A stretch of 64,000 bases of DNA, taken from Tetradesmus obliquus. Taxonomy: Eukaryota; Chlorophyta; Chlorophyceae; Sphaeropleales; Scenedesmaceae. The stretch spans positions 1,736,001 to 1,800,000 of the forward strand of contig CP126206.1 in the NCBI GenBank assembly GCA_030272155.1, written 5' to 3'. The position numbers were made by a program, and so were the translations under genes. Position 1 is the first letter of the stretch. Each line of letters starts with the position of its first letter. Under the pieces are notes generated by a model, which was not told the origin of the DNA, ran no database searches, and worked only from the letters and a program-made list of their open reading frames with translations. Of the stretch, positions 1-50,315 are shown one piece after another.

Positions 1-1447
1 AGCGGCCTCACCTGCGTTGACCTGCAGGTAGAAGGGGTGGGAGCTGTACAGGTTCTGATCGGGGTCGGCAGCCGGCTTGTCCCTGCGGCACAAAATTAAC
101 GTGACACGACAAGTCAGCCAAAGGGGTGAGAGCTGTGCAGACTTTAATCAGGATGGGCAGCTGGCTTGTCCCTATGGCACAGATGAATAGCAGAAAACGA
201 CAAATTTGCCAGAGGGGTGAGGGCTGTGCAGGTTCGGTCGGGGTCTGCAGCTGGCTTGTCCCTGCGGCATGCAAAACATTACACAGAAATGACATGTTGA
301 TCATTCGTATGTAGCCCATACAGGTTGTTTCTGTTGTTTTCGTGCTCTCAAAGCGACATGTGGTGCTGTCTTTATGGCTTCCCGCCGCAACACACACCTG
401 GTCCAGAGTGTCAGCTTGCGCCCGTCACGTGGCAGCAGCGCCCACTGGCCAACACTGCAACACGCTGAAAAGCAACCATGCAATGATCTGTCTGCTGCAC
501 TCTGCTGCGTACCTGTTCCAGAGTGTCAGCTTGCGCCCGTCGCGTGGCAGCAGTAGTCCAGTAGATAGGGTAGTCTCTCCCAGGCCATACAAGCTGGCAC
601 TTTTGGGGATGGCTGTGGTCAGCTCAATGTACTGGTCCTTGAACACAAACCTGCGGCGCACCAGTAAGAATGACAAATAACAGTGTCACAGCATGACAAA
701 GTGACAAGGTGACATCTGTTTGGTGCGGTCTCACCGAGCCCATACAGGCTGGAGCATCTGGGGATGGCTATGGTCAACACAATCTACTGGTCCTTGAATA
801 CAGACATGTGGCACGTTTGTGACAAAACAACATAATAACACGGTTTAAAATGACAAAATGACAACTTGACAGCTGTTTTGTTTGTCCTCACCCAGCTGCT
901 ACAGGCTAGCGCATCGAGGATGGCTGTGGTCAACAAACGTTGCTGCGCACAAACCTGCCGCCAGGGTCCAAGAGACGTAAGCGGTTGTGGAGGTGTTATA
1001 GTATTAAGCGAAACCTCAACCATATAACACCGAACCCTGCTGCAATCCGCTGCCCCACTTGTATGCAGTGCATGGTTTGCTGCGAAGTCAACCACTTACA
1101 TGAGGCTGTCAAGCATCTGCTGTCTCAATTACTATTATCAAAACTATTGCGACATGGTATGCAACTCACGTGTGTCTCCTGGTATCAAAAATGGGCTGCA
1201 AATTTGCCAGCCGTGTCACCGTAAGTGCAAAAGGCCGCGGCTGCTTTGCGCCCACCATTGGCTGCGCTACACGGTACATCAGCCGGGAGTGATCCAGATC
1301 ACCAGCAGCACCAGGCCTGGCAGCAGCAGCAAGTGTAGCGGCAGCAGTAGCAGCGGATGATTAAAGCAACTCTAGCGCCAGCCATCGGTTGCGCCACGCG
1401 ATACATTAGCCGGGAGTGGTCCAGATCAGCAGCGGCACCAGGCCTGG

Positions 1448-1486
<39 letters not shown>

Positions 1487-14099: not shown

Positions 14100-15750
14100 C
14101 ATTCTTTAGCGCATATTGACAGAACAGCGAGGTGACGCGCTACTTCCAGGGCGGTTGCATGAATGGCTGAAATAGTCTGCTGACTGAGCATTGGTCTGGC
14201 TGCAGAACTTCTGCATTCAATGCAAGCCTTGCACCTGAGGTGACTGTAACAGGGAAGTTTAATGGGCGTTGAGCTGCTGCCACGTGCACGTTAGACACGT
14301 GTCTCACCACGGTAGGGGCCGCTCCTTATGTCTCATAATATCAACATGTTACCTCTTCACACTGTGCCCTTGGCAAGGGCAGCCGTGACAATATATCTTT
14401 TGTAGCATTATTAATATTGCTTAACGTTCTGACGCTTGCCCACAAACAATACCACCAGGCAGCGCTGCCCAGCTGTTGCGCTGCCAACTGCAAAAGCAAG
14501 GTTACTGACATCACGCGGTGCTGGTAACGGGCATGGCAACAGCAGCACCCGAAGCACGCTGTGGACTACCGGATTGGTGTGTTGCCTGACAGTGCCGAGT
14601 CAGCTGCGGGGCATGCCTCTTTCAGCAGGCCCTCACGTAAAGTCAAAGTCCTCAGAAGTCAAAGTCAGAGTCCGTCAAAGTGAAGCCAGGCAGCTGCAGA
14701 TGATCAGCATGCACATGCGCTGCATCCTTGCATGCCAAGCATGCGCAAGCTTGCTTGGGGCCAACAGCCAGAGCAGCCAGAAAGCTGATAAGCAGGCAGA
14801 TAAGCAGACAACAGTCTGCCGCCGCTGCAGCCTCAGATGACATAAGCCAGGCAGTGCGCCGCAGGCAGCAGTGCACGCCACGCTCTGTCGTGTGCCACCT
14901 GCTGCAGACAGCCTCAAGACCAGGCCCGAGCAGCTGCACACCAGATCACATGAAAAGCGATGCACAGCTGCTGCTGCCAGCACAGTCAATGAGTGATGCG
15001 GCTGAGCACACCACTGCTGGCAGTCTCACACATGATACAGCACACAGGGATGTATCACTGATGATGCACGGCTGCTGCTGCTGCTGCTGCTGCCGTGCAC
15101 GCGGAGGCGCTGCAGGTGAGCACCCCACAGCTGATGGCAGCCTCGAATTTACCATATCTGGAACTCACGCACCCCCTTGTGTTGTGTGCAATCGCAGCCG
15201 TGCTTAGCATGGCGCAGGGGGCGCTGCATCAGCCATGCAGTGCGGCCAGACTACATGCAAGCCCGCATCTGCTGGCCGCAGGCAGACGTAGCATGCACAG
15301 CTACTTGGCACAGTGTACAGCTGCGTCACACCAGTTCTGCCAAAGTACAATGGTGACACTACTGCCCACACACCAGGCAGAAGAAGGGGCAGTAAGAAAA
15401 GTGTGCCAAAGCACGGGGCATTGGTAACATAGTGGCTGAGCTACTACATTCACAGCAGCGGAAGCACCACTATCGCAGTAGCTGCTGCACGTGGCCGTAT
15501 GCCAGAAACTGCCTAGATTTGCTGACATCTGATACAATCAGGCCTTCTACTCCCCTTCCTACTCTTCTCTATGGCTGTGTCTGCCTACAGCAGACCTGGG
15601 CATCAGCAGCTGCTGCTATACCAGGCCGTGGCATGCCCCTGCTGGTCCCCCTTGGGGCACGCTGCTGCTGCTGCTGCTGCAGGGGCAGCCATGTCATTGC
15701 AGATGCTCTTTGCCGCCTGCCGCCGCAGCTCCTGCTGCTGCTGCAGGTCA
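14100..15750. other. No gene confidently identified
   Basis: Mostly non-coding in appearance. A short LRR-like stretch (VSTPQLMAASNLPYLEL) is readable on + at about 15095-15180 and may be a relic of the LRR family. CTG runs occur at about 15073-15093 and 15660-15680. Confidence 0.4.
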
Positions 15751-15753
15751 CTG

Positions 15754-18445
15754 TCATACCAAGTTCTCCTTATCGCCTGCTGCTTCTGTGGTGGTTCGTC
15801 GCCGCTTGACGCCGCACACGCCTGCCTTGTTTGCTGCGTTGCTGTTCAGCAGCAGCGCCGTGTGGCCGCCTGCCGCCCACCATTGCTCCTGCGCTGCTGC
15901 TCCCTGCCTGCCTGCCTCATACACTGCAGGCACAGCAGCAACACACAGCAGAGACGTAGCAAAGCAGGTCAGGGACGATGCCGTGCTCTCATGCTAGGTA
16001 CAGGAACACAGCCCCCGGTTCGCGCAGTCCCCACTGCCGCCTGCCCCCCCTCGCTCAGCTTGCTTTCAACAACCGCGACGGCCCCGAGCAGAAACCCTGA
16101 CAACCACCCAGTAACAGCACTGACTTGCATGTGTTACCTTTTGGTTGAGCTTGCTTGCGGCAGCCGTCAGAGCTTCCCCATCTGGCAACTTACAGTTGTG
16201 TGTGAGCAGCTGTGGCCCTTGACAGCAACAAAACAACCAGGACAGGAAACAACGCCAAACAACTGGCACTTCACATGCTTGCTCCTGCTTGACCTGAGTA
16301 CCACAACACGAGCTGCCAGCTGCAGCCACACAACCTGAGTAACACCACAAACTCATGTGTTTTCTCTTCTTCATTCAGCTTGCTTGTCGCAGCCGCCAGC
16401 GCTGCTCCACAAAGGGCCTTGGGGCTGCCGTGAGCAGCTTGGCAATGACACAGATACCAAAAACAGAATCACCAGAAACCGCTGCTTGACCTGCTGTTCC
16501 TTCTCCCTTTTGCTTGCCCAGCATTTCCCCATCCTGTTGCCCATCACCCCAAACACAATCTAAACAGAGAAAAGTCACGGCTCTCATGTTTTCTCCTCTT
16601 CATTGAGTTTGCTTGTGAGAGCCGCCAGCGCTGCCCCATCTGGGGCCTTTCAGCTGCCGGTGAGCAGCTTGACCCCCGTCCCAAGACTCCGACGCAACCG
16701 TCAAAAACAACTGAGAACTGCCAGAACACCGCTGCAACATGCGTTTGCTTCTTTTCCGCGCACAAAGCAGACCTCTATACGCCAAAAAAACCACAACAAA
16801 TCAACCCAGACTCACATGTTTTCTCCTCCTCATTCAGCTTGCTTGTCACGGCTGCCAGTGCTGCGCCATCTGGCGCCTTGAGGCTGCCAGTGAGCAGCTT
16901 TGCACTGCGTTCGGCAAAGGCCTTGCGCAGGAAGCCTGCTACGCTGCTGTCTCCCATGCTGCAAACAACAGAGTGGCACAGCGAGAGCACTTGCTTGAGT
17001 ATTTGCATAAAAGACCGAAGGGATGCAGCACGCTCCGCAATCGCCTTGCGCAGGCAACTCACTATACTGCTGTCACCCATGCTGCAGCAACAACACACGG
17101 CAGGAAACTGATACACGCGACTTAAGGATTATGCACAGGCATGCAGGCAGGTCTGCTTGCAGCGTGCTCCGCAGACGCCAATGCATGGCTTCTACTGCTG
17201 GCCAGTCACTCACGTGGCCGCGCACTGCATGCCCACGGTGTAGAAGTAGGGTGTCTGCTTGAGGCTGACCGTGTTGGCGCCCGCGTCAACCTGCCGCTGC
17301 ATCCTGCAAGTGGCAGCAGCAGCAGCAAGGTGAGTCAGCAAACACACTGAACCAAGCTGCAACAGATGCCGTGAACCCAGAGATCGGGAACCGAGGTAGG
17401 GTGTTATATATTACTCAAAACTCTGCCGTGACGCGCGGTCAAACCACATGGGAGGAGGCAGCAGTACTGTTTGCTGGCCTGCTGCTGGCTGCTGCTTGGC
17501 TGCTGTCCTGCTGTGCACTCACCATTCGCCATACACTGCTGGCGCGTCCATGCGTGTGATGCCTCGCTCTGTTAGGGATTTGGCTAGCCACAGCGGCAGC
17601 TCTGCCCGCGTGTCTTTCCGCAGCTGCACAGCACGCAGCAGCAGGGAATAGCATCGTGTCGTTGAGCGGCCCGGGCATGCATGTCGCCCCTCAAAAACAG
17701 CAGTTGCAGCAGCTGCTACTCTGCACATGTGCTGGTTCTGATGAGTCAGCCGCAAAGTTGGGTTTGCAGCAAAGACGAGTCCACTGCTGTGGGTATACTG
17801 CCAAGCATGCATCGCGCTGGCAGCTGGCAGTCGCTGCTGCTGCCATTGCACACCACACCGGCTGCGGTTTCAGTGGTTTGCATGCATGCAGCTGGAGGGC
17901 TGCAATTGCAGAGAGGTTTTATAACCTCCGGATACTGGCTTGCATCCGGTTCGTGCACACACACATTGCTGCTGCCACTGATGCTGATGTTCGCTGGCTT
18001 TGCAGGAAGATGTCGTGGTGAGGTGTCGCTGCTGCTGCTGCAGCAGCTGCCGTTTGAATACGAACCAAAGGATATTGCAATATTATGTCTGAAGTTCCTA
18101 AGCTGCTGATGCCTCTGCTTCTGGAACTGCTGCAACTGCCCACAAGAAGCTGCTGCAGCAATAGAACTCACATCCTCTGATGTGCTTGTTGGCTCCAGTA
18201 CGCGCCCTAGATGCCTGACAGCGTGCTGAAACTCGCAGGGCACCATCTGCGAAAGAAATAGCTGCTTAGATGTGTAGATTGGTAGATGAGGAGCTGCAAC
18301 TTGAGTGTGAGCTCCGAATGGCCTGCAGCTGCAGTACTGCAGCAGCTGCAACCATTACTGCTTCACAACACAGTGCCACGGCGCTCACCGCGTCTTCAGA
18401 CAGCAGCGATATAGGATCAAAGTATCTTTCGTGCAGTTCTGCCAT
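15754..18445 (-). CDS. PSF3: GINS complex subunit PSF3 (GINS3)
   Basis: PSF3 is one of the four GINS subunits that bind MCM2-7 and CDC45 to form the replicative CMG helicase in the nucleus. Exons are 18445-18389, 18246-18172, 17623-17523, 17303-17214, 16958-16816 and 15923-15754. They total 636 nt, frame kept, 211 residues, close to human PSF3 (216). The start reads MAELHERYFDPISLLSEDA. Family marks in order are VPCEF near residue 21, the central ELPLWLAKSL followed by a YGE element, SLKQTPYFYTVG (human HKMGPHFYGFG), FLRKAFAERSAKLL, and LYEAGRQGAAAQ near the end (human LFQTGQKG). It ends with a basic tail KRRR...DKENLV. Exon-edge copies of the fifth exon surround it. The call rests on motif order and length, and is firm. 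Confidence 0.9.
16140..16660 (-). repeat. Three donor-edge copies of PSF3 exon 5
   Basis: Copies at about 16140-16210, 16367-16430 and 16597-16660 repeat the exon end (APDGAALAAVTSKLNEEEK), spaced about 230 bp. The authentic donor AT/GTGAGT is altered in each copy, which suggests they are not used. Confidence 0.8.
17020..17085 (-). repeat. Acceptor-edge copy of PSF3 exon 5
   Basis: Repeats CTGCAG/CATGGGTGACAGCAG and LRKAIAERAASL, upstream in gene sense of the authentic acceptor at 16958. It reads open for over 30 codons, so a competing use of this acceptor cannot be excluded. Confidence 0.75.
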
Positions 18446-29069: not shown

Positions 29070-29107
<38 letters not shown>

Positions 29108-29174
29108 AGTGTCGCTGCGTGGGCAAAAACCCGTAGCGTGAAGCTCAGCAGGATGCAGCTGGTCGGCTGCTTCA
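27471..29174. other. Intergenic region with degenerate tandem repeats
   Basis: No gene recognised. 27840-28420 is built from degenerate units around GCTGCGGTGCAGTGCTGARCAC, roughly 50-65 bp apart. CTG runs lie at 29075-29105. Confidence 0.55.
27840..28420. repeat. Degenerate minisatellite (TGCGGTGCAGTGCTGARCAC-like)
   Basis: At least eight diverged units share TGCRGTGCARTGCT followed by GARC/TAAC and CACTC. Examples begin near 27861, 28011, 28202, 28229, 28266 and 28333. Confidence 0.7.
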
Positions 29175-30295
29175 TCAGGCCTTGACACGGATGTCACTGC
29201 ACAGCAGGACACCAGCAGCAGCAGCAGCAGCAGCAGGCAACAACAGCAGCATGTAAAAGTCAGTACACTTGCACTGTAAAAGCAGCATTGTCAGCGCTCA
29301 CCAGGCAAGCAACTATGAGGCTGCTTTTGACATAGTGCATGTTGCAACATCAAGAACCAGCAGCACAACATCAAAGATTTTGCTGCTTACCTAAGTAACG
29401 TGCTTACTTAGGTAAGCAGAACGTAATGAATTTCAGAAGAGCATGGACAGGCACTCACGCGCAGTTCCAGAACTCCTCGTGGTATGCCGCCCCTGGACTG
29501 CCGCGTTATGGTGTAGTTTGGTTGAAACAGACAGGTCAAGTATATTTGAGTGCCACCCTCAAGGATTTGAAATAGATAAAGCAGCACTCACGCGCAGTTC
29601 CAGAACTCCTCGGGATACGCTGCCCCTGGTGTGCCGCAGTACGGGATCTGGTAGGTGGGCGGCCGGCAGTTGGGGAAGGTGGGGTCTTCCTTGCTGCATG
29701 GCGGCCTGCAGAGCACAACGGCAACAGCAGCGCCTCGTGTTGAATTTATGGCTTTGATTGCTGGCAAACATTGGGGGCCGGCAACTGGGGAAGGTGGGGT
29801 CCTCCTTGCTGCATGGCGGCCTGCAGAAAAAAACGGCAGCAGCAGCACCTCGTGTTGAAATCGTGGCTTTGACTGCTGGCAAAGGTTGGGGGCCAGCAGT
29901 TGGGGAAGGTGGGGTCCTCCTTGCTGCATGGCGGCCTGCAGGAAGCAGCAGACATACCAGCGCCACAGTGTCAGTAACAAAAACATGCCTACTGCAAAGC
30001 TGGGGGACGGCAGCTGGGGAGGTGGGGTCCTCTCCTTGCTGCATGGTGGCCTGCCAAATCATTGGCAACAGCAGCACCACAGTATAAGTGACGGCTTTGT
30101 CAGCTAACACGGCGGCAAACAGCTACTAAACATGCATTGCATTGTCACATGGGCCATTGAGAACGCATAACAACACAACAAAGCAAAAACATAAGACTCA
30201 CCAGCAGCTGTTGCCGGTGAGGTAGTGCCACTGCAGGATGCAGCGCTCGCAGCTGAAGTCCTTGGGCAGCCGGTAGCGCACCTCGTACACCGTCT

Positions 30296-30327
<32 letters not shown>

Positions 30328-31335
30328 GGTCAGATCATCTGCTTATACTTTTGCATCTGCTGCAACTCATGCTGGCCATCAACCGATAAGCGTATGTATG
30401 TTATCACAGTACGTGCCGCCCCGCTGCTGCTGCACGCCACCTGCTTGCTAGTGCACTAGGTGAGCTGACTTGCTGCATTTCACTACAGTCTTTTGCTGCA
30501 TTTTAACACACTGAACTACTGCCACTCACGTTGCCCATGAACTGGTCGCAGTACTTGCCCGCCCCGCAGTTGGTGTGTGGCATGTTGAACCAGCTCCAAC
30601 TGCTGATGGGGCCGCGCTCAGTCGGCACAGCCGATTCACCTGCAGGTGCAGGCCATTTGAAACAGGTTTCAGAAACGTGCAGGAGAACAGCTGATACTGC
30701 GGCTGCCATCAGTGTTTCACACGACACCGCCTGTGTTTGCAGGCCAGCATGGTATAGCAGCAGCAGCAGATCTTGTAGCATGGTGTGAGTGTGATTGTTA
30801 TTGCGGCATGTTGAACCAGCTTCAGCTGCTGATGGGGCCGCGCTCAGTGGGTACAGCTGATTCACCTACAGCGGCAGCAATCAATCACACGGGTATATCA
30901 GCAAGAGGTGAATTCCAGAAAGGGAGCCGCCAAGCCACTTTTGGTTGACTGTTGAGTGCAGACTTGCAAGACATGCATGTTCAACCAGCTCCAGCTGCTG
31001 ATGGGGCCACGCTCAGTGGGGGTGGAGGCCTCGCCTACACATCAACTTTTCAGCAGCAGAGACTGAGAACACTAACACAGCGTGAGATACAGCTGCTGGT
31101 GAACCAAATGCTACAGAACATTGTGAAGTTAATAGCGCTGCCTGCAAAGCCGCCGCAGCTGTGGCTCCGCTGTTTTATGCCCCCACCACAAATGCCTGAT
31201 TTGCAATTATGTTCACATCCATCATGATTCAGCTTAAGGTTTTGATATTTTCTGCACTCTCTGCCCACCTGTTGCTCCGCCGTTGTAAGACCTGATACGC
31301 GGCAGGTAGAAGAACTGACCCCTGCCATCAGCCCT

Positions 31336-34132: not shown

Positions 34133-35475
34133 CTACTTCACGCTCAAATTGAACACCTTTCGCACGCCGGATGTCAGACCCGCCTGCACCATGTCTGCTG
34201 CGGCCACCCATCGAAGGGCCGGCCTTGCACCCGCTGCTGCTGCTGCTGCTGCCTGCTTCCTCGGTCGCTTCTTGCTTGCTCCCTTCTTAGATGCCTTAGG
34301 TCCACCTTCATCTTCATCCTCTTCAGAATTGGACGCCGCCGCCGCAGCAGCATCGTCCTGATCTCCCTCTTCTTGCCCAGCAGCAGCAGCAGCAGAGGTG
34401 TCACCAGCACCAGCACCAGCTGCTGCTGCTGCTGCTGCTGCCACGCTGCATACAGCCTCAAGTGAGGGAGCCAGCAGCACCAGCTCCTCTGCATGAAGGC
34501 TCTGCCTGATGTGTGAAAAGATGTGCACCAGGGACCCCAGCTGCCGCCGCTGCACCACATGCACACCTGCCTCAGCAGCAGCAGCAGCAGCAGTAGTGCT
34601 GCTGCCGTTGCTTTTTACGCGCTTGCTGCTGCTGGCACTGCTGCTGCTGCTGTTGGGAAGCAGCACCGCAAGGGGTCCTGCAAGGTGGCCGTCTACTGCT
34701 GCCCTGCGAGCAGTCGGGGTGGGCTCGCAGTCGATGACGACACCTGCACAGGCAGCAGCAGCAGCAGCAGCAGTAGCCAAAGCAGGAAGTGAGCACGCGC
34801 AGCAGGAAGTCGAGCAGTGGGCGTGGGATTGCAGTTGATGGTGACACCTGCACAGGCAGCAGCGGCAGTGGCAACAGCAGCAGCAGCAGCGTCAGCGGCA
34901 TATTGCATGTCGAGTATGTGAAGCATCAGTACGCTCTGTCAACAGCCTCGCCAAACATGGGCAACACCAACATACGCATTGTGTTACTGTTCACCATGAA
35001 GTTTACTGCGGTTACCGCACTGCTCACCCAAAACAACCTTACAACCCTGCCAGCACACTTACATCACATGAACGCTCTTGACAGCAAATGAACCTGCATG
35101 CTTATTCAACCAGCGCACCTGGGAACTCCCAAAGCCCAGCCAGCACACCCGTCTCCGGGCGCTGCACCAGCAGGTAGTGCGCAGCAGCACCAGCAGCCAG
35201 CAGATCAGCCTCACATGCCACACACTGCTGCTGCTGCTGCTGCTTGCCGCCGTCCTGCTGCTGCTGCTGCTGCTTGGGCGCTGGCTTGAAGAAGCTCCTG
35301 ATGCTACCCTTGCCGGCGGAAGCAGCAGCAGCAGCAGGCTGCGCCGAGCCCGCTGCTGCTGCTGCTGTTGCTTCCACTGCTGCTGGTGTGTCAGCGCCTG
35401 GGAGCAGCAGCACCTTGAGCACGCAGACAGCCACCTGCTGCTCTGCCTTGGCTGCCTTGGCCACCTGCAGGCAGT

Positions 35476-35516: not shown

Positions 35517-38156
35517 TCTGAGAGCACGCAGGCAGCCAACTGCAGCTCTTTCTGCGCTGCCTGATTTACTGCTGGTTGGCTGCGACGTTGCAGCAGTTCA
35601 TGGCGTTTCAGGACACAAACACAAAAAGCCACCCTGTGCACTGCACAATGCGTTGGAGGCATTTCTCAACTGCATCAAGTAACCTGCAGCCCTGGCCACG
35701 AGCCGTAGAAAACAAACCTTTTCTGGGAAGTCTGTCACCCGCGGCGCATCTTCCATGTCGCCGCTGGCAGCAGCAGCAGCAGCAGCGTGATCGGCGACCA
35801 GCTTGTAGGCCGCACAGCAACTGCTGACGGGGCACATGCCGCAGGAGGGGTTGACCGGCTTGCAGACAGTGGCCCCCAGTTCCATCATCGCCTGAAGCAA
35901 GGACACATGACAACACACTTTCAAGGTTCAGCTTTACAACATGAGGTGATTGCCATGGGATGCAGGGATAGATAGCAAGGAAGGGCAGCAGCAACATGCG
36001 AGGGTTTTGCAGTACCAACGCGATGGTCTTTTAGCAGGGATTGTTAGCAGGGACATGGCTGCACCTGCCGCAGGAGGGGTTGACTGGCTTGCAGACAGTT
36101 GCCCCCAGCTCAGGGCCCGCATCCTGGCCAGCACTCGAATCACGTTGACGTCTAAATCCCACACCCAACGCAGACCATCAACAGATCACCAGCGCAACTA
36201 CATGTGCTGCCCCTGAAAAAGAGTACAGCCCACAATCAGGCCAGCATTCAACAGCAGCACACCTGGTTGTGGCAGCCGGGGCGCTCCGGGTGCAGCAGCT
36301 GCGCTGCTAGCTTGTCCCAGGCCTTTGTCATCTTTGCAGGGTTGCCCTTCAGGGCCCGCATCCTGGCCAGCACTCGGATCACGTTGCCGTCCACAACCCA
36401 CGCCCTGTGTTGGGGCCCAACGCGGACTAACAACAGATCACCAGCGCAGCTGGATATGCTGCCCCTAAAAAAGAGTACAGCACACAAGAAGGCCAGCATT
36501 CAACAGCAGCACACCTGGTTGTGGCAGCCGGGGCGCTCCGGGTGCAGCAGCTGCGCTGCTAGCTTGTCCCAGGTCTTTGTCATCTTTGCAGGATTGCCGC
36601 GAAGGGCCCGCATCCTGGCCAGCGCTCGGATCATGTTGCCGTCCACAACCCACACCCAACGCAGACCATCAACAGGTCACTAACACAGCTGGGTGTGCTG
36701 CCCCTGAAACAGAGTACAGCACACAAACAGGAAAGCATGCATCAGCCTCCCACCTGGTTGTGGCAGCCGGGGCGCTCCGGGTGCAGCAGCTGCGCTGCTA
36801 GCTTGTCCCACGTCTTCGTCATTTTCACCGGGTTGCCCTTCAGAGCCCGCATCCTCGCCAGCACTCGGATCACATTGCCGTCCACAACCCACACCCAACG
36901 CAGACCATCAACAGAACATCAACACAGCCAGATGTGCTGCCCTTGAAACGGAACACAGCACACAAACAGGAAAGCATGCATCAGCCTCCCACCTGGTTGT
37001 GGCAGCCGGGGCGCTCCGGGTGCAGCAGCTGCGCTGCTAGCTTGTCCCACGTCTTTGTCATTTTCACCGGGTTGCCCTTCAGAGCCCGCATCCTCGCCAG
37101 CACTCGGATCACGTTGCCGTCCACAATCCACACCATACGGAGACTACCAACAGAACATCAACACAGCCAGATGTGCTGCCCTTGAAATCGATTTCAGCAC
37201 ACAAAAAGGACAGCATTCATCAGCAGCACACCTGGTTGTGGCAGCCGGGCCGTTCCGGGTGCAGCAGCTGTGCAGCTAGCTTGTCCCACGTCTTCGTCAT
37301 CTTTGCAGAACTGCCGCGCAGCGCGCACAGCACTCGGACCACCCATCCTGTCCAAATCCCACACCCAACGGAGACCACCATCGCAGCTAGATGTGCTGCC
37401 CCTGAAACTAAGTACAGCACACAAAGAGAAGAGCATGCATCATCAGCACACCTGGTTGTGGCAGCCGGGGCGCTCCGGGTGCAGCAGCTGCGCGGCTAGC
37501 TTGTCCCAGGTCTTTATCATTGTTGCAGGGTTGCCCTGCAGGGCCCGCATCCTGGCCAGCACTCTGATCACGTTGCCGTCCACAACCCGCACCCAACGCA
37601 GACCATCAACAGATCACTAACACAGCTGGGTGTGCTGCACCTGAAACAGAGTACAGCACACAACCAAGACGGCATTCATCAGCAGCACACCTGGTTGTGG
37701 CAGCCGGGGCGCTCCGGGTGCAGCAGCTGCGCTGCTAGCTTGTCCCACGTCTTTGTCATCTTTGCAGGGTTGCCGCGCAGGGCCCGCATCCTGGCCAGCA
37801 CTCTGATCACGTTGCCGTCCACTGCTGCTGCTGCGTCGTTGAACGCGATGCTGGCGACTGCTGCTGCAGTGTAGGGGCCAACCCCGGGGATCTGGCGGAG
37901 CTGCAGCAGCACGCACGCAACAGCAGACAAATGTGCACACATGTGATAAAGCAAGCCAGTTGAAGGGGGCGAGGATCCAGGTGCAATGATGTGTAGGGAC
38001 CCACACCGGAGATCTGGCGCAGCTGCAGCAGCAGGCACGCAGCAGCACAGATATCTACGATGAGTGTGGAAACACAAGCATGTGGGGGTGTCAGGTGCCG
38101 TGCGCCAGGGTACGGACGCACACATGGGATCTGGCGCAGCTGAGAGGGCAGCAGCA

Positions 38157-38189: not shown

Positions 38190-41100
38190 GCAGCAGCAGG
38201 CGCGTCAAGCACAGATGGATGTGGGCTGTGTGGTGCGACATGTGGTGCCAAGCAAACTCGCAAGCAGCTGCAACCCCCAGCTGTGCTGCTGATGAGACCA
38301 GCGCAAACCTGCTTCAGCTAAACAAAAAAAGAAACCAGCTGCGTCAGATGCTCAAGCTGCTGAGTTAGACACAGTGTTTGCTGAGTATGGCGCTGCTGCT
38401 CTTACCTCTGCAGCTGTCTCCGGGAATTTCCCGCCCAGCTTGTTCACGATGTGTTGCGCGCCCTCCAGCAGGTACCGCGCGCGCCTGCACCACAAAGTTC
38501 ACATTGAACAAGCAGTCTTCACGGTGTGAACTTCACAGCAATGTGCACTTCGAATCCGATAGTGGCATGCATGCGGTGCTGTGCTGCCCTCCTTCAATAC
38601 CACACATGCACTTGCTAGCATCGTTCAATGATGCGGAGGAGTTCTCACTGTGAAGTTTGCCAGTGTGTCAAAATTCTCGGTGTGAACTTCTCACCTGTAG
38701 TAGCCTAGGCCTGCCCAGACCTCATTGACCTGCTCCTGGCTGGCAGCAGCCAGCGCAGTGACGGTGGGCCAGGACGCGATCCACCTACAGGCACGCCAAA
38801 TGCAAGCAGCGATATGCAACAAGTTGACAGGCATGCATGTGATACAGTGCACGCAGTGGCTTGACAGCAGTGGCCAAGCTGCAATTTACCTGCAGGCACA
38901 ACAGGTTGATGCAAGATGGCTAAGCAGCTGCAGGCCTTGCTGTTCCTGCAAATGATCACTATACATACATTAAAAAAACGACACACAGACCGGCCATGCA
39001 GCAGCGGCCAAGTGCTCATCCACCTGCAGGCACCTATGCACACAACACCATAACCCATGCGCACTTGTTCTAGTTTGTCACCACACAGACTTCCAACCCC
39101 GCTCATGCGCACTCACTTGTTGAAATAGGTCACAAGCGAGGCCTGAGTGTCTGCTGCAGCATGTTTTCTCTGGCCTGTACAGCCCCACACCTCTCCATCA
39201 CAATAACATAACCCAAGCTCACTTGTTGAAGTATGTCACCACGCGTGAGACCTGCGTCTGCTGCAGCATGATCTCACTGACCCACACATAACACTCGCAA
39301 TGACACATAACAATCCATGCTATCATGTACTCACTTGTTGAAGTATGTCACCACGCGTGAGACCTGCGTCTGCTGCAGCATGATCTCACTGACCCACACA
39401 TAACACTCGCGATGACACATAACAATCCATGCTATCATGTACTCACTTGTTGAAGTATGTCACCACCCGTGACACCTGCGTCTGCTGCAGCATGATCTCA
39501 CTGACCCACACATAACACTCGCAATGACACATAACAATCCATGCTATCATGTACTCACTTGTTGAAGTATGTCACCACCCGTGACACCTGCGTCTGCTGC
39601 AGCATGATCTCACTGACCCACACATAACACTCGCAATGACACATAACAATCCATGCTATCATGTACTCACTTGTTGAAGTATGTCACCACCCGTGACACC
39701 TGCGTCTGCTGCAGCATGATCTCACTGACCCACACATAACACTCGCAATGACACATAACAATCCATGCTATCATGTACTCACTTGTTGAAGTATGTCACC
39801 ACCCGTGACACCTGCGTCTGCTGCAGCATGATCTCACTGACCCACACATAACACTCGCAATGACACATAACAATCCATGCTATCATGTACTCACTTGTTG
39901 AAGTATGTCACCACCCGTGACACCTGCGTCTGCTGCAGCATGATCTCACTGACCCACACATAACACTCGCAATGACACATAACAATCCATGCTATCATGT
40001 ACTCACTTGTTGAAGTATGTCACCACCCGACACCTGCGTCTGCTGCAGCATGATCTCACTGACCCACACATAACACTCGCAATGACACATAACAATCCAT
40101 GCTATCATGTACTCACTTGTTGAAGTATGTCACCACCCGTGACACCTGCGTCTGCTGCAGCATGATCTCACTGACCCACACATTGCAATTCATAACGACC
40201 ATAACAACATACTATTTCCCAGGCTTACTTGTTGAAGTATGTCACCACCCGCGACACCTGCGTCTGCTGCAGCATGATCTCGCTGACCCACACATAATAC
40301 GCAAACTCCTGAGGCGGCAGCTCAGCAGGAGCCGGCTTGGCAGCTGCCAGCGCTGCCTCTGCTTCTGCTGCTGCTGCCAGCTGCTTCTTGCTGGGCTTCT
40401 TCTGCTTGCCGCCGCCGCTGCTGCCGCCGTCTTCTGCTGCTGCTGCTGCTACTGCTGCTGCTGCTGCTGCTGCCAGCTGCTTCTTGCTCGGCTTCTTCTG
40501 CTTGCCGCCGCTGCTGCTGCCGCCGCTGTCCTCTGCTGCTGCTGCGGCGGCGGCGGCGGCTGGTGGGGGTTGTGTGGAGGGGTTTTGCTGCTGCTGGGGT
40601 TTGTGGTGCGGGTTGCGGCGCCAGGGCAGCACGCGCTGCACTCTGTCATACCATGCCAACAGCAACTGCTGCACCTGCAAAGCGCAACAGAACATATGTG
40701 GGTGACAGCTGAAATATATCGTGCAGTTTGCGGCGCCAGGGCAGCACGCGCTGCACGCGGTCATACCATGCCAACAGCGACGGCTGCACCTGCAAAGCGC
40801 AACAGAACATATGTGGGTGACAGCTGAAATATATCGTGCAGTTTGCGGCGCCAGGGCAGCACGCGCTGCACGCGGTCATACCATGCCAACAGCGACGGCT
40901 GCACCTGCAAAGCGCAACAGAACAGGATGCGGCTGAGTTGTCGGGATGAAACACATTGTGGGGGTTGCGCCGCCAGGGCAGCACGCGCTGCACACGGCCA
41001 TGCCAACAGGCTCTGCTGCACCTGCGCACCGCAACAAAACAGCTTGGCAGTAGCAACATGCTGTACACAGGTGTGGTTGCAGTGTGGCATGTACGGTGGG

Positions 41101-42476: not shown

Positions 42477-45400
42477 ATGGCGCTGCGTAATGCTCGAATA
42501 CTGCTTCAGAAGGGCGGCCGAGCCCTGCAGCAGCTGCAGGTGAAGCCCATAGTTCAAGCTGATATGCGTTTATGCTAGGGCTGGACCTAAACGTGATCTG
42601 TGCGTGCAGGCTGCCAGCGCAAGCGAAGCAGCTTCTCAGCAACTGATCCGCCCGTTAGGTAAGTGTCGGGAGGGCGAAGCAGCTTGTAGGGCCCATGACT
42701 CGTGCTGACCGGATGCTTTCGCAGGTCAAGCGGTGGCCAGGCAGTCTCTGTGGACCGGGTAAGCTCTCGCTATCGCTGATCAGTATATATAATTACTACC
42801 GAAGCTGTTGGCGCTCACGTGCGTTGGACTGTGCTGCTATTCGCAGGCTGTCACAGCATGGGCAGAATGCAGGAGCAGCAGCAGCGCAGGCAGCTCTGCC
42901 CCGCCTGCGTAGCAGCAGTCAACGCAGCATCGTCCGCAGCCTGCAGACGAGTGCACCTGCAGCAGCCGAGGTGGTGGTGCCGGCTATGGGAGACAGCATC
43001 ACAGAAGGCAGCATCGCAGCAGTGCTCAAGCAGCCAGGTGGGTTTAGTTGTGCCTGTTTCGGTCAACTAGGCATCTTGAGGTTGCAGTCGCCTGCTTTGG
43101 AATCTGTAGCTATTCTTGTGACCGGGCTGACTGAGAGGTGCAGGAACTAGTTTCATGGCAATGCGCAAGTTCCTGCAGACTGCAGCTGTACATCAGTGCA
43201 GTGCAGGGAACACATCATCGCCTGCCCAGCGTGGTGCATTGCCTTGCGCGTATCGTGTAGTGCTGCTTCTTAGCATGCAGCCTGTTTGTTTTGAAAGAGC
43301 AGGAGAACTGGTAGGCAGTCACATGGCTGCATCTTACATGCATGTCTGCAGCCGTGCACGGCAGGGGTCTTGTGACATGAGTGTCGATTACTTTGTGCAT
43401 CTGCTCGTGTGACCAGACCCCTTTCGTGCACCATGCAAGTATTGACAGTGATGCCTATATCAACACTGTGTTGCTCAGCTGCTGGCCCGCATTGCATCGC
43501 AAGTTTACTGCATGTTCATCACGTGCCGCCTTTCCCGACTGCATGAGACCAGGTCACCATAACATTTTTGTGATCACTATGCAGGTGACACCGTGCAGGA
43601 GGATGATGTCATCGTACAGACGAGACAGACAAGGTTACCGTCACCTGCCTGTCTTACTGTTGTTGTGGAGACCGTCGAGCTCAATAATACACACGCGTGT
43701 CATACTTCTTATCTGAAACTGTGCAGGTGACACCGTGCAGGAGGATGATGTCATCGCGCAGATCGAGACAGGCAAGGTTACCATCGACGTGACGTTCACA
43801 GGATGTGTTCGTCAACTGCCACGCAGGTGACACCGTGCAGGAGGACGACGTCATCGCGCAGATTGAGACAGACAAAGTTACTATTGATGTGAAGTTCACT
43901 GGCAAGAGCGGCAGAATCAGCACGCTGCTTGTGGCAGAGGGTGACACTGTGGTCGTGGGGCAGGCAGTGGCAAGCGTAGAAGAGGGAGACTTTGGCAGCA
44001 GCAGCAGCAGCGCGCCGGCAGCAGCAGCAGAGGAGGAGGCTCCTGCAGCAGCAGCAGCGCCGCCTAAGCCAGCAGCAGCAGCAGCACCCAAGCCGGCGGC
44101 AGCAGCGCCGCCGCCGCCCCCCAAGCCAGCAGTACAGCAGCAGGTGAGGCATGTTGCGAGCACATTGCGCTTCGCAGTTCCGTTGTTGTATGCCACATGT
44201 CAGCTGCAGGATGCCTGTCACATGCATGTGGTCCTTGTGGCGCCCTGCATTATTGAAGCTACTCTGTACGCGCGTTTGTTGGCTGTCTGTGCACGCGCGC
44301 ATGCATAACCCCTGGGTGCATTGCACAGCAGCGTGCCGGCCGTGTCACAGCTGCTTGTGTTGCACATGTTACAACGGGTCACAGCTTCCGCTCGCAGCAG
44401 CAGCAGGTGGGGGCAGCCAGCATCATACATGTGCTGCTTACCATGTGCTGTGGGTCCGGGTGTTTACCAAAGCTGCTCCTGCAACAGCTTGTGCAGCACC
44501 AGCTTCACTTGCCCCTGCTGTGACTGACAATGTGCTGTACACTGTGCACTGCTGCTGCGGCCGCTGTTGTGATCAGGCGCCTGCTGGTGCAGCTGGCGGC
44601 GGCGAGGCAGCTCCACCTCCAAGCAGGGGAGACAGGCCAGAGAGGTGCGCCCTGATCTGCTGCAGCTGCCGCAGCTAAAAAATTTGCAGAGCCACAAAAT
44701 ATTGCATTTCTAGCCCAGCAGCAGAAGCAGTAGCGGGCTGTGAGCAGCAGGAGATGCACCTGAAGCATTCGGTTTTCAAGCGACATATCGAGGCCAGCAC
44801 GCGTGGCAGTTCAGCATGTCTCTCAGGCGTCATGTGCCAGCTGCCAGCACAGCTGCGGCAGTGGCAGCAGAGGGTGTGACGAGGAGGGCCTGATGCCAGC
44901 ACAGCAGTGTCGGTGTGCGGCACCACAGCATGCTTGGCTGTAGCTACATGCTGGCAGTGTAGCAGTGGCAGCGGCAGTTGAAGCGGCTCCTTGTGCCAGA
45001 GCGGCTGAAGGGTTGCTGACATTGGCGTCCTGCTGTTGACTCCTGGAACTGTGCTCGCGTACACCCCGTGGGACGCAGGCGCATGAAGATGGCGCGGCTG
45101 CACGTGGTGGTGCGGTTCCCCACGTCCCTGCAAACCGTTGAGTGTTGTTGTTCTCAGCCTCAAAGCCTGCTTGTTTGCGCATTTTTGTGGCCTGCAGGCG
45201 CGTGAAGATGACGCGGCTGCGGCTGCGCGTGGCGGAGCGGCTGAAGGGCGCGCAGAACACGTACGCGATGCTGACCACCTTCAACGAGGTGGACATGACC
45301 GGGCTGATGGAGATGCGCAACGCGTACAAGGTGAGAAGCAAAACCCTAATATCTTGAACCGCAGGTTCTTCCTTTCAAGTTGCTATGCTGCAATCATGGC

Positions 45401-47863
45401 TGCTGACCACCTTCAACGAGGTGGATATGACCGGGCTCATGGATACGCGCAACGCGTACAAGGTGAGGGTTTTGCTGCTACCTTGAAACCCTAGGGTTCG
45501 AGCCTCTAAACCTACACCCCAAAGACGTACGCAATGCTGACCACCTTCAACGAGGTGGACATGACCGGGCTCATGGAGATGCGCAACGCATACAAGGTGA
45601 GGCGTAAAAATTTTGACCAGCAGAGTCACGTTGTTGAGCGCTGTTTTGGTTATCATCCTTGCAATATGCCGTGTGAAGCGGTTGGGTGTTTGCACATGTG
45701 TGAATGCCATCAAAAGTGGGCATGTTCCTAATTGGGCAGCTGCGCGCCTGGTGTCATGCTGACCACCTTCAACGAGGTTGACATGAGCGGGCTCATGGAG
45801 ATGCGCAACACGTACAAGGTGAGAACGTGCTCTGCGACTGCTACCTATTTTTGCCAATGGCTACTGCCCTGATCATATGTGGGGCATGCACGAAGCGCCT
45901 GTCTCCCACGTGTGTTTCCACGTTGTTTCCACACCCCTACGGTTCCATCAGCTTGTGTTGCGCCGCACGGTGCATGCCCCTGTGCACAGCTGTGTGAACC
46001 CCTTGCTGCTTTTGGTGCTGCCAGCAGCAGCTTGCTGAGCATGGTGCGGTTGCATTGCGTCGAGGCGCGCCTGAGGGGTGCTGCCTGGCTGGAGTCGCCA
46101 CAAGGCGACGTAAAACAAGCAGCGCCCGCTCGGCGCGCCTTTCTGACTGCAGCGAGTTTGTGCATGTTTACCTTTTTTTAGCAGTCAGTAGTGTGCATTG
46201 GAGCAGCACTCAGGGAGCAGGGGGCTGCTAATGCTACTGGAACTGCTGTTTCTGAGCAGCTGCTTGTGTGGCAGAAGGCCTCGGGCTTACAGCAAGCTGT
46301 GTGGATGCACTGTATCGAGGCATCGAGGCATGCATGGGGGCCGCTCCTTGTTGGCGTTCGCCCACAAGCAACACCAACAAAGGAGCGGCCCCTGGGTGTG
46401 CCTCATCCCCACAGCTGTTAGAAAACAGAGGTGGTAAATAGCTTGATCCGTGCTTCATCTTTCACATGCCTGCCGACTGATTCCGTGGCCAGTTACTTGA
46501 TACATGTCATTTGCAACTGACGACGTGTTGTGCGAAAAGCATGGTGTGAAGCAGGTTTCAGGCCGCACGCGCTCTTGTACTGCTCTTGCTTCTCATATGT
46601 TAGTTACTCACGACAACGTGTAACGTGTATTTCTGCAGGACGTATCTCTTGAGTAATATGGTGTGCAGCTGGGCTTCATGCCGGCCTTTGTCAAGGCCGT
46701 TCCTGTAATGCTCATGTTGGTTACTTACTGAAAATGTAACATGTTATCCTCCTGCAGGATATGTTCCTCGAGAAGCACGGTGTCAAGCAGGGCTCTATGT
46801 CGGCATACGGCATAACACGTGTTGCTTCCCTCCTGTATGTTGCTCAGGAAAACTTCAACATGAAAATTTCCTGCAGGACGTGTTCCTTGAGAAGCATTGT
46901 GTCAACTTGACAGCGGCTGGGCTTCATGTCGGTCTTTGTAAAGGCGGCGGTTGCATCTCATATGTTTGTTACACACCTCGATTGTAACGTGTTCTTTCCT
47001 GCAGGACGTGTTCCTTGAGAAGCATGGCGTCAAGCTGGGCTTCATTTCGGCCTTTGTCAAGGCCATTCCTGCAACTCATATGTTTGTTACACACGTTGAT
47101 TGTAACATGTCATTTCCTGCAGGACGTGTTCCTTGAGAAGCATGGCGTCAAGCTGGGCTTCATGTTGGCGTTTGTCAAGGCGGCACTTCTGTTACTTCTG
47201 AAGTTACTCATGATATTTATAACATGTTATTTTCCTGCAGGATGTATTCCTTGATAAGCATGGCGTCAAGCTGGGTTTCATGTCGGCCTTTGTTAAGGCG
47301 GCGGCTGCAGCGCTGCAGGAGGTGCCTGCAGTCAATGCGGTCATCGATGGCAGCGACATCATCTACAGGTGAAAGAAGGAGGGATAATGGCTATGTGTTT
47401 GTATTGGTTTCAATGTGGCAGCAGCGCTGCAGGAGGTCAATGCTGTCATCGACGGCTCTGACATGATCTACAGGTGAAAGACTGAAGGAGGATTCATTCA
47501 CAGCACAGATGCCTCCTCGCCCATCACCATTCTGCTGGTTGACAAGCAGCAACCTTGTATGCTGTGTTTGGTGCTGGCTGCGTTCAAACACAAAACCCCT
47601 GCTATGTAATATTGGCACAATGCTGCTGCTGCTGCTGCCCTGCAGGGACTATACCGACATCTCCATTGCCGTAGCCACGCCCAAGGGCCCGGTGGTGCTA
47701 GAGGCATGAAGATAGCCTTGAAGCAATCATGTTGTCAACCAGCTTGCTGCTGTTTGTCATAATGATGGCTTCAAGGCTATCTTGATTTCTTTCTGTGTCT
47801 CGGCTGTCGCTGTGCAGGGACTACATGGACATCTCCATCGCTGTGGGCATGCCCAAGATCTAA

Positions 47864-47902
<39 letters not shown>

Positions 47903-50315
47903 GCCCCCACAGGGACTACACCGACATTTCCATTGCTGTGGCCACCCCCAAGGGCCTGGTGGTGCCTGTGCTGCGCAGCGTGGACAAGCTGAGCTTTGCA
48001 GAGGTGGAGAAGGTGAGGGGTGTTACATCTGCGTTGTGAGTATGTTACTTTTGTGTCATTTGCTGTGTGAACAATGCACTGTGTGGCATCTGGTGGTGGC
48101 GCCGGTGCTGTGCAGCGTGGACAAGCTGAGCTTCGCAGAGGTGGAGAAGGTGCGGCAGTTGTCACTTTGATTGTTACATGTTGGTTTATTTTGGTTTCTG
48201 TGGCGGCGTGCACCGTGTGTTGTGTAGTGCCCGTGCTGCGCAGCGTGGACAAGCTGAGCTTCGCAGAGGTGGAGAAGGTGCGGTCATGTTACAGTTGTTG
48301 TTATCTTCTGTCATAAATGTGTTAGATGTGCATTGTGCTCTGCTTCACTGGTTCATGTTTGTGGTGGTGCCGTGCTGCGCAGCATGGACAAGCTGAGCTT
48401 TGCAGAAGTGGAGAAGGTGAGGGGATGTTACATTTGTGTCATTGTGTATGTTATGGTTGTGTTATTCGCTGTGTGGACACTGCACTGTGAGGAAGCATTT
48501 GGTGGTGGCTCCGGTGCTGTGCAGCGTGGACAAGCTGAGCATCGCAGAGGTGGAGAAGGTGCGGCAGTTGTCACTTTGATTGTTACATGTTGGTTTATTT
48601 TGGTTTCTGTGGCGGCGTGCACTGCACCGTGTGTTGTGTAGTGCGTGTGCTGCGCAGCGTGCACCAGCTGAGCTTCGCAGAGGTGGAGAAGCTGCAAGGG
48701 TTGTTACGTCCAAGTTGTTGGGGTTGTTACAAATGTGTTATTTGCTGCGCGGACACTGCACTGTGTGGATGCATTGGTGGTGGCTGCAGTGCTGCGCAGT
48801 CTGGACAAGCACAGCTTCGCAGAGGTGGAGAAGGTGAGGGGCTGTTACGCTGGTGTTATGAGTTTGTTGCTTTTGTTTCCTTTGCTGTGCGGAACATCAC
48901 CATGTACCATACAAGCGGGTATGCCCGTGCTACGCAGAGTGGACAAGCTGAACTCCCTGATGTGGCCCACCTCATCCCAAAGATGGCCGGAGTCCAACTC
49001 TGACCCTTGAACCCCCCAAGCCTGAAGCTCCTCTAAATGCTGACGCTTGCTGCTTCGTGCAGGCCAGATAGCGCTGGGTGGAACACCTCCAAACATATGC
49101 ACCTCTAAACCGAACACTGTGTGCTGCGCTGCCACTGCCTCAACAGAACATCAACGCGCTGGGGCGCAAGGCGCGTGACGGCTCCATTTCTATTGATGAC
49201 ATGGCAGGAGGCACATTCACAATCTCCAACGGCGGCGTATACGGCAGCATGCTGAGTACGCCTATCATCAACCCGCCCCAGAGTGCCATCTTGGGCATGC
49301 ACAACATCACCCCGCGGGCCATGGTGGTCGGGAAGAACATTGAGGCGCGCCCGATGATGTACATCGCGCTGACATACGACCACAGGCTCATCGACGGCAG
49401 AGAGGTGGGCTTTTGTTACATTTGTTTTCACTGCCTTCTCGTTATTCGTTCTTGTCTTGGTTCTTCTGCAATCCGTTTGAAATGTGGAGTTGCTGTTTTT
49501 GTTTTGGGTGGTGGTGTGGTTTGTGCCATTCTGGGCATGCACAACATCAGGCCGCGGGCCATGGTGATGGGCAAAAATCATGGAAGCAAGGCCGATGATG
49601 TACATCGTGCTGACATATGACCACAGGCTCATCGACGGCAGAGAGGTGCGCGTCTGTTGTGTATCTTACTCTGATACACAGTTTCATTGTGTCCCATGTT
49701 CTGCTCTGTAGCTGTTGGCATGCCTCCTTGCTGAAGATTTGTCTACTGGGTGCTGTTGTGGATTGTTATGTTTTGTGATGTTTTTTTTAAGCAAGAACGT
49801 TACAAGGGCTGACCTAAATACCTGTGCACTTGCTCCATAAAACGATCCATTGAAAGAGTGAGGCAACCTGTTCCGCACTCACCCCACATGTTTTGTGATG
49901 TTGCGCACCAGATGCCCAGGTGGCTGCACAGCCATGTCCTGGTTTGGCAGCAGATGTGTGCACACTGCCAGCATGTTGGCTAGATCGTGCCGTCGCGCTG
50001 GTCATATGGTTGCTGGCATGGGCTTCGCAACATCCACACGGCCGCAGGCTGGCAGCCGCGTACACACTACTGTTGTGTTCACGGCCTGCTGCCTGCAGCT
50101 GCGTGTTGCGCATGTGTCACATGCCACGCCGCCGCTGCGCATTGCTGGCAATCAACATCAGATGAGGCACAGGAGGCTGCTGGCACACTCACCTGTCCTT
50201 GCTGCTGCTGCTGCTGCTGCTGCTGCAACCCTCACATGTTACACAGGCCGTCACTTTCCTGAAGCGCGTCAAGGAGGTGGTGGAGGACCCCAGGCGCCTG
50301 CTGCTGTCAGTGTAG
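42477..50315 (+). CDS. DLST: Dihydrolipoamide succinyltransferase, E2 of 2-oxoglutarate dehydrogenase
   Basis: E2 transfers succinyl groups to CoA in the mitochondrial TCA cycle. Exons: 42477-42539, 42610-42658, 42725-42758, 42847-43037, 43827-44143, 44577-44644, 45198-45330, 47241-47368, 47913-48012, 49147-49404 and 50247-50315. They total 1410 nt, frame kept, 469 residues, close to known DLST lengths. The N-terminus ([14 protein letters not shown]) is Arg/Ser/Ala-rich, as expected of a mitochondrial targeting peptide. The lipoyl domain starts at [13 protein letters not shown] and carries lipoyl Lys129 in [10 protein letters not shown]. An Ala/Pro linker follows with no clear subunit-binding domain, as in eukaryotic DLST. 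The catalytic domain shows [62 protein letters not shown] and the active-site H440-x3-D444-G. Many introns hold exon-edge copies. Confidence 0.95.
43582..43800 (+). repeat. Two acceptor-edge copies of DLST exon 5
   Basis: TGCAG/GTGACACCGTGCAGG and GATGATGTCATC recur at about 43584-43640 and 43727-43800, before the authentic exon at 43827. The second continues through the lipoyl-lysine motif but reads [13 protein letters not shown]. Confidence 0.92.
45075..45118 (+). repeat. Acceptor-edge copy of DLST exon 7
   Basis: CAG/GCGCATGAAGATGGCGCGGC repeats the start of exon 45198-45330. Confidence 0.8.
45400..45825 (+). repeat. Three donor-edge copies of DLST exon 7
   Basis: GCTGACCACCTTCAACGAGG through AACGCGTACAAG plus a GTGAGR donor recurs at about 45402-45462, 45535-45597 and 45756-45819. 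Copies read [20 protein letters not shown] with one to three changes. Confidence 0.93.
46337..46392. repeat. Inverted repeat in DLST intron 7
   Basis: GGGGCCGCTCCTTGTTGG at 46337-46354 pairs with CCAACAAAGGAGCGGCCCC at 46374-46392, with one bulged base. Confidence 0.85.
46630..47180 (+). repeat. Five acceptor-edge copies of DLST exon 8
   Basis: CTGCAG/GAYGTRTTCCT plus GAGAAGCATGGCGTCAAGCT and GGGCTTCAT recur at about 46640, 46759, 46877, 47006 and 47122, before the authentic exon at 47241. Spacing is 116-130 bp. The copies nearest the real exon are the best preserved. Confidence 0.92.
47420..47475 (+). repeat. Donor-edge copy of DLST exon 8
   Basis: GCAGCGCTGCAGGAGGT through ACATGATCTACAG plus GTGAAAG, about 104 bp after the authentic donor. 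Confidence 0.88.
47640..47862 (+). repeat. Two acceptor-edge copies of DLST exon 9
   Basis: TGCAG/GGACTAYAYSGACATCTCC recurs at 47646-47705 and 47818-47860, before the authentic exon at 47913. The first copy stays open through [11 protein letters not shown] then a stop. Confidence 0.9.
48095..48965 (+). repeat. Seven donor-edge copies of DLST exon 9
   Basis: GTGGACAAGCTGAGCTTYGC and AGAGGTGGAGAAGGTGMGG recur near 48100-48150, 48226-48280, 48370-48420, 48513-48562, 48643-48692 and 48788-48838, with a degraded copy at 48919-48960. Units of about 120-150 bp also carry intron sequence (TGTTACATTTGTG-like). Confidence 0.94.
49518..49650 (+). repeat. Donor-edge copy of DLST exon 10
   Basis: Repeats GCCATTCTGGGCATGCACAA through CTCATCGACGGCAGAGAG and a GTGCGC donor, including the HRLIDGRE active-site codons. 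A one-base insertion near 49577 shifts the frame relative to the authentic exon, so it cannot replace it directly. Confidence 0.92.

What the first reader, a model, noticed from the sequence alone, without database searches (positions are those of the whole stretch)
1..50315. Tandem duplication of exon edges together with their splice sites, in nearly every multi-exon gene
In GH31, the FUSC transporter, PSF3, both LPMO-like genes, MUTYH and DLST, introns hold tandem copies of the adjacent exon's edge, the splice site itself and some flanking intron. Donor-edge copies lie downstream of the authentic exon; acceptor-edge copies lie upstream. Units are about 105-240 bp and copies nearer the exon tend to be better preserved. 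The same rule at more than 20 exon edges in seven unrelated genes points to a lineage-wide mutational process. Candidates are replication slippage or break repair at exon-intron borders, or selection for reserve or decoy splice sites. Intron gain by tandem duplication of AGGT-containing exon pieces is known, but arrays built on existing borders are a different pattern. The system could generate alternative splice isoforms or buffer splicing.
Basis: partly seen in the sequence, partly recalled or inferred. Interest (0 to 1): 0.9.

Follow-up and report, generated by a model that had tools for sequence, protein, structure and literature searches.

The report
Exon-end copies crowding algal introns
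In this nuclear genome, probably a green alga's, many introns carry repeated copies of the neighbouring exon's end with its splice site; the copies look like non-coding leftovers of tandem duplication and recombination rather than a splicing device, and they may keep a record of older versions of the exon.

Summary
At MUTYH, DLST, a GINS/PSF3 gene and an LPMO-like gene, introns hold direct copies of the adjacent exon end with its splice site: donor-end copies downstream, acceptor-end copies upstream. The rule recurs on other contigs, including CCT chaperonin, E2 and GH31 genes found by homology. 'Nearly every multi-exon gene' is too strong: in five 50-kb samples 12 of 46 multi-intron genes and 36 of about 600 borders have curated copies. 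Yet 38 of 54 local duplication families there sit on borders and 1 is intron-only, where uniform duplication predicts slightly more intron-only than border cases.

The new fact: in many copies the exon part matches at about 90-97% while the intron part of the same unit is unalignable. Exon and nearest copy differ mostly at third codon positions (66-75%), but changes private to one copy are nearer neutral (44%) and most indels break the frame. So much of the divergence probably predates duplication. Best reading: roughly 120-bp tandem duplication plus recombination between diverged functional haplotypes; borders stand out because introns do not align between haplotypes. A splicing function is not supported by these tests but not excluded. 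Haplotype and RNA data are needed.

The parts
40229..40674 (-). MUTYH authentic exon (..[18 protein letters not shown])
   Evidence: HhH-GPD E 1e-22
39117..40228 (-). Array of 10 curated donor-edge copies downstream of that exon, period 106-112 bp
   Evidence: TRF 112 bp x 9.7, 96% matches
40675..41042 (-). Acceptor-edge copies upstream of the MUTYH exon 40229-40674, period about 115 bp
38695..38784 (-). MUTYH authentic exon ([14 protein letters not shown])
38785..39040 (-). Two degenerate acceptor-edge copies upstream (seen by eye only)
38406..38484 (-). MUTYH authentic exon
37691..37900 (-). MUTYH authentic exon ([15 protein letters not shown])
36111..37690 (-). Six donor-edge copies of that exon, period about 239 bp
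   Evidence: TRF 239 bp x 7.2 over 36111-37822 incl. the exon end
37991..38142 (-). Acceptor-edge copy of the same exon, upstream (a second one seen by eye)
35718..35891 (-). MUTYH authentic exon; acceptor-side copy at about 36061-36111
35119..35464 (-). MUTYH authentic exon
45198..45330 (+). DLST authentic exon (..[16 protein letters not shown])
   Evidence: 2-oxoacid_dh E 6e-81
45331..45825 (+). Three donor-edge copies (borders 45462, 45596, 45818): exon part about 94%, intron part at random level
46586..47240 (+). Five curated acceptor-edge copies (borders 47122, 47004, 46876, 46757, 46638) upstream of exon 47241-47368
   Evidence: TRF 118 bp
47241..47368 (+). DLST authentic exon; donor-edge copy downstream with border at 47473
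47642..47912 (+). Two acceptor-edge copies upstream of exon 47913-48012
47913..48012 (+). DLST authentic exon (RDYTDIS..SFAEVEK)
48013..48951 (+). Six curated donor-edge copies, spacing 128-142 bp
   Evidence: TRF
49147..49404 (+). DLST authentic exon; donor-edge copy at 49523-49658
50247..50315 (+). DLST last exon
15603..17525 (-). GINS/PSF3-like gene model with border copies (16815/16356; 16958/17081)
   Evidence: Pfam Sld5 E 1.6e-6
29063..30583 (-). LPMO_10-like gene model with border copies (29705/29820, 29935, 30050; 29591/29458)
   Evidence: Pfam LPMO_10 E 6.8e-5

Best explanation
Short tandem duplications (mostly 95-155 bp, also about 240 bp) arise in this genome. One that runs from an exon across its splice site into the intron does no harm, because the outer splice site is still used and the copy becomes intron. 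In many cases the two units then lie on, or come from, different diverged functional haplotypes, either because the unequal exchange itself was between homologues or because later allelic recombination swapped one side. The exon parts therefore differ like two working alleles: third positions differ, splice sites are intact, introns do not align. The copy then decays neutrally. Arrays of identical units are later expansions of one unit. Duplications wholly inside introns become invisible once the units carry different haplotypes, so the visible ones sit on borders. Shown here: copies, side rule, spacing, border excess, exon/intron asymmetry, strong third-position bias of old differences and much weaker bias of private ones. 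Inferred: the role of diverged haplotypes, and lack of function.
For: Five independent 50-kb regions: 54 families = 38 border, 1 intron-only, 9 intergenic, 4 exonic, 2 other; the uniform null gives border:intron:intergenic .278.347.375, p 2e-13. Exon-side 40 bp identity .86 against intron-side .71 (random .49) over 300 border-crossing pairs, not independent of each other. Of 113 adjacent pairs, 60 have exon tract at least 30 bp and at least .85 identity; 25 of these 60 have an intron part at or below .62 (null mean .515, sd .051). Pfam-anchored set of 11 borders: nearest-copy mismatches 12/8/61 by codon position, intron part .52-.67; over all 23 copies GT 16 of 16, AG 7 of 7. Third-biased: authentic against all copies 3/1/32; shared by several copies but not all 7/7/48. 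Private to one copy: 62/63/100. Families whose intron part is still above .80 identical (8 of 50) already differ .014/.007/.120 by codon position. A neutral-decay simulation gives intron about .77 when exon is at least .85, and third fraction about .43 (parameters my own).
Against: No second haplotype or strain was available, so haplotype divergence is inferred only. The required third-site divergence (about .1-.2) would make this a hyperdiverse or hybrid lineage. Some pairs with exon 97-100% have a fully random intron part (C3 33814; E2 on C9), which asks for very fast intron turnover even between alleles. The Pfam-anchored copies were found partly because they still match the protein, which favours third-position differences. 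Private changes still lean to third positions: 75 observed against 53 expected in the curated set, and 6/14/25 (56% third) in the Pfam-anchored set alone. The third fraction varies somewhat between families (p .04). The border excess among recent families alone is weak (5 border, 0 intron-only, 2 intergenic; p .017 for border against intron-only).
Confidence: 0.42

Rival explanations
1. Concerted evolution: ordinary tandem duplications whose exon part keeps exchanging sequence with the authentic exon by gene conversion or unequal crossing-over, while the intron part drifts out of homology.
For: The conserved block is the exon end plus roughly 3-10 intron bases, the part that is constrained in the authentic copy. 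Arrays with identical units show that local expansion occurs. In simulation, conversion leaves exon at least .85 with intron .42-.62 in part of the runs at some settings (6 to 28 of 60).
Against: In those simulated survivors the third-position fraction is .27-.42, against .66-.75 observed; the simulation has no codon-composition bias. A test for mosaic mismatches was not decisive (21 of 84 pairs p<.05, but tract ends confound it).
Confidence: 0.22
2. The copies are functional: spare or alternative exon ends, or decoy splice units, kept by selection.
For: Splice dinucleotides are intact in 105 of 113 curated copies and 23 of 23 Pfam-anchored ones. Third-position bias between exon and copy. Exon part far better kept than intron part. 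Residual third-position lean of private changes.
Against: Copies are partial: 0 of 48 reach the opposite exon end. Frame-breaking indels predominate (19 of 25; 3 of 3), and stops occur at about the chance rate (4 of 174 private changes, expected fraction .031). Private changes are much less third-biased than old ones. Splice dinucleotides are about as well kept as first and second codon positions.
Confidence: 0.13
3. Plain neutral tandem duplication with survivorship: copies on borders look better kept only because the authentic exon is constrained.
For: Explains the side rule by necessity. In 23 of 50 curated families the nearest copy's intron part is at .65 or more, broadly compatible with a common age.
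Against: Cannot give exon .93-1.0 with a random intron part, nor 38 border against 1 intron-only family, nor third-position fractions of .66-.75.
Confidence: 0.1
4. Exon-end-limited copying: a template-switching or RNA-guided process inserts exon ends with their splice site into introns.
For: Recent-looking copies end about 3-10 bp past the splice site (C3 33814, C1 44273; E2 on C9).
Against: Intron-part identity is a continuum from random to 1.0 rather than two classes. Does not explain third-position bias.
Confidence: 0.08
5. Assembly artefact.
For: The near-identical 112-bp MUTYH array could be miscounted.
Against: Most curated copies differ from each other, and the pattern recurs on C1, C3, C4, C8, C9, C12, C14, C16 and C17 of a 17-contig assembly. 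No raw reads were available.
Confidence: 0.03

Closest known systems
Intron gain by tandem duplication of exonic AGGT segments (Rogers model; PMC4974935, passages read)
   Same: Short direct duplication involving splice signals; the potato RdRp case also crosses an intron-exon boundary.
   Different: There a new intron is made; here existing introns are filled with copies of their own borders, at many genes, often in arrays.
Small tandem duplications from DNA break repair (CST-Pol alpha fill-in, PMC8355091, passages read; patch-mediated break repair in rice, recalled)
   Same: Head-to-tail short duplications in the genome; a likely birth mechanism.
   Different: Here spacing is mostly 95-155 bp (that paper speaks of insertions under 100 bp), and the intron part is often unalignable. 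Junction microhomology was not tested systematically.
Introners / invasive intronic elements (search listing only, e.g. PMC7789003; definition recalled)
   Same: Lineage-wide growth of intron sequence.
   Different: Introners are dispersed near-identical introns; here copies are local and gene-specific.
Tandem exon duplication / mutually exclusive exons (recalled)
   Same: Repeated exon sequence with splice sites inside a gene.
   Different: Only one exon end is copied in the cases examined (0 of 48 reach the other end).

Membership tests
Intron gain by tandem duplication | Duplication creates a new intron | tested here: not met
   In MUTYH, DLST, E2 and CCT genes copies lie between the exons of conserved proteins, inside introns; orthologous intron positions in relatives were not available
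Small tandem duplications by break repair | Direct, adjacent, short units | tested here: met
   231 direct against 4 inverted local pairs in 314 kb; spacing
Small tandem duplications by break repair | Whole unit identical at birth | tested here: inconclusive
   True for recent arrays (C1 19381, 41180, 44835); many others have an unalignable intron part
Small tandem duplications by break repair | Junction microhomology or staggered-break signature | not tested
   Only glanced at by eye
Introners | Dispersed near-identical introns | tested here: not met
   A piece of the MUTYH array matches only its own locus in the whole genome; few matches further than 3 kb apart in about 332 kb, 0.3% of the genome
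Mutually exclusive exons | Complete exon copied with both splice sites | tested here: not met
   0 of 48 matches reach the opposite exon end, exons of at least 80 bp
Regulatory decoy or alternative splice sites | Copies used or bound in RNA | not testable with these tools

The most novel reading that the evidence does not exclude
The copies are a working stock of spare exon ends: they keep the amino-acid sequence and splice site and are spliced in under some conditions, so that this lineage buffers or diversifies splicing with arrays of exon-end duplicates.
Probability: 0.1. Interest if true: 0.9.

Novelty: new variant of a known kind. Interest (0 to 1): 0.6.

Why it matters
If the best reading holds, introns of this genome store fragments of other alleles of the same gene, so one assembly reports on deep haplotype divergence, unequal exchange and intron turnover. 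It also warns that gene finders in such genomes can call copies as exons (my own did). If a function were shown, it would be a new kind of splicing redundancy. The pattern gives a direct test of how tandem duplications feed intron growth in this lineage.

Tried and rejected
Gene conversion as the leading cause: simulated, gives the wrong codon pattern (simple model). A test of mismatch clustering was confounded by tract ends, so I draw nothing from it. Paper searches aimed at this pattern: one search found no paper; searches listed none whose title or abstract start describes it. Paralogues as a calibration of intron turnover: the two GH31 genes on C11 share BLAST matches of 70-88% and their introns do not align by BLAST, too diverged to calibrate. 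A first anchored alignment script placed gaps at the border and gave false zero tracts; replaced. In one search one of 23 intron alignments failed (0.0) and is not used. Mini-exon idea (an acceptor at the start of each copy): fits C3 33814 by eye but not the other five donor families printed.
Full report
What the sequence is. The window is G000:C16:1736001-1800000 of a 104.66-Mb, 17-contig genome, GC about .55, rich in (GCA)n. I take it for a green alga close to Scenedesmaceae.

Check of the observation. TRF and self-BLAST show many local direct repeats. The MUTYH and DLST catalytic exons, joined, read as proteins without internal stops (HhH-GPD 1e-22, 2-oxoacid_dh 6e-81). Copies of their exon ends plus splice sites lie in the introns, donor ends downstream and acceptor ends upstream.

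Independent sample. I trained a small HMM gene finder on the window and five 50-kb regions (C1, C2, C3, C4, C9): 454 exons, 385 introns, median intron 242 bp. Local direct pairs number 231 in 90 families, local inverted pairs 4. In the five regions outside the window, 54 families are 38 border, 1 intron-only, 9 intergenic, 4 exonic, 2 other. A uniform-duplication null gives .278/.347/.375 for the first three classes (p 2e-13; border against intron-only p 9e-13; recent families only 5, 0 and 2, p .017 for border against intron-only). The gene models are mine and call some copies exons, so 'border' includes cases where the authentic copy is uncertain, and my curated borders were used in the classing. 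Of 54 exon sides with a non-coding local copy (exons of at least 80 bp), 48 face an intron; of these 41 copies reach within 3 bp of the border, 2 are 4-15 bp away, 5 more than 40 bp, and none spans the exon.

How common. Of 105 automatically linked border components I curated 50 by hand, leaving out or merging the rest, mostly alternative HMM borders of the same array or very short exons. In the five regions, 12 of 46 genes with at least 2 introns, and 36 borders among 300 introns, have copies; clustering in genes is modest (p .028). C2 is poor: 1 of 134 borders against 35 of 466 elsewhere (p .0016); its E2 gene shows none and its CCT gene none by Pfam matches.

Homology-based check free of my gene models. 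Searching the own genome with PF00118 lists 96 matches, which fall in 11 contig/strand groups. Of 27 redundant overlapping matches, 14 are classed donor-edge with the copy downstream, 10 acceptor-edge with the copy upstream, 3 other, none in the reverse order (tolerance 3 positions, pairs not independent, and copy-copy pairs can get either label). E2 (C9) and GH31 (C8) show the same. Of eight proteins from genes with copies, seven have Pfam matches: ClpP, COX15, AP2, ANAPC2, alpha/beta hydrolase, AAA helicase, RabGAP.

The central anomaly. In 300 border-crossing pairs the 40 bp on the exon side average .86 identity and the 40 bp on the intron side .71, random .49; exon is higher in 235 and lower in 56. 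With anchored alignments, 25 of 60 well-kept exon tracts have an intron part near random. The conserved block ends about 3-10 bp past the splice site. Whole-unit identity is seen in recent arrays (C1 19381, 41180, 44835; the inner copies of the MUTYH array). Duplication followed by neutral decay does not give this: in simulation exon at least .85 goes with intron about .77 (parameters are mine).

Codon evidence. Nearest copies differ from the authentic exon at 42/37/156 first/second/third positions in 50 curated families and 12/8/61 at 11 Pfam-anchored borders (these were partly ascertained by protein similarity). Changes private to one copy are 62/63/100 (56/49/75 curated, 6/14/25 Pfam-anchored), authentic-against-all-copies 3/1/32 (Fisher p 4e-7 against private), shared by several but not all copies 7/7/48. 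In the curated set private third-position changes are 75 against 53 expected from base-specific rates, so a residual bias remains, and families vary somewhat in third fraction (p .04). Indels: 19 of 25 (copies of one family counted separately) and 3 of 3 break the frame; 4 of 174 private changes make stops, expected fraction .031. Families with intron part above .80 already differ .014/.007/.120. Thus old differences look like those between working alleles, recent ones much more like those of a pseudosequence; change at positions 1-2 (about .03-.06 per site) is far smaller than third-site divergence (about .12-.22).

Interpretation. I favour tandem duplication combined with exchange between diverged functional haplotypes. 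It explains the exon/intron asymmetry, intact splice sites, third-position bias and why mainly borders are visible. It is not proven: no second haplotype was available. Gene conversion within one haplotype gives the wrong codon pattern in my simulation. A functional role would need copies to be spliced although they lack the other exon end; frame-breaking indels and the weak bias of private changes speak against it, but no RNA data were available.

Known work. Nine searches listed no paper that, by title or abstract start, describes this pattern; the library lacks most subscription journals. Closest are tandem-duplication intron gain (PMC4974935, passages) and small tandem duplications from break repair (PMC8355091, passages).

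Noticed in passing
window 51645-51820 and 52032-52207: Inverted repeat of 176 bp, 98.9% identical, arms 211 bp apart.
   Followed up: no
window 52746-55431: About 2.7 kb related in three pieces at 70-73% to C3:5004278-5007038 (L015); probably a dispersed element.
   Followed up: no
window 26310-26560: 251 bp, 93.6% identical to C4:2041798-2042048; a dispersed repeat.
   Followed up: no
G000:C2:3007041-3015839 (L010, L011): 4,400-bp exact tandem duplication at 100% identity; very recent or an assembly overlap.
   Followed up: no
G000:C7:4971941-5042980: Eleven LPMO_10 matches, mostly spaced about 5.54 kb: a tandem gene array.
   Followed up: no
contig C2 (three loci): Border copies look depleted on C2: 1 of 134 borders against 35 of 466 elsewhere (p .0016), none in its E2 gene or, by Pfam matches, its CCT gene.
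   Followed up: partly
gene models of the window and of C1, C3, C4, C9: My ab initio HMM calls border copies as exons, giving proteins with repeated segments (e.g. ClpP, COX15); other gene finders may do the same.
   Followed up: partly
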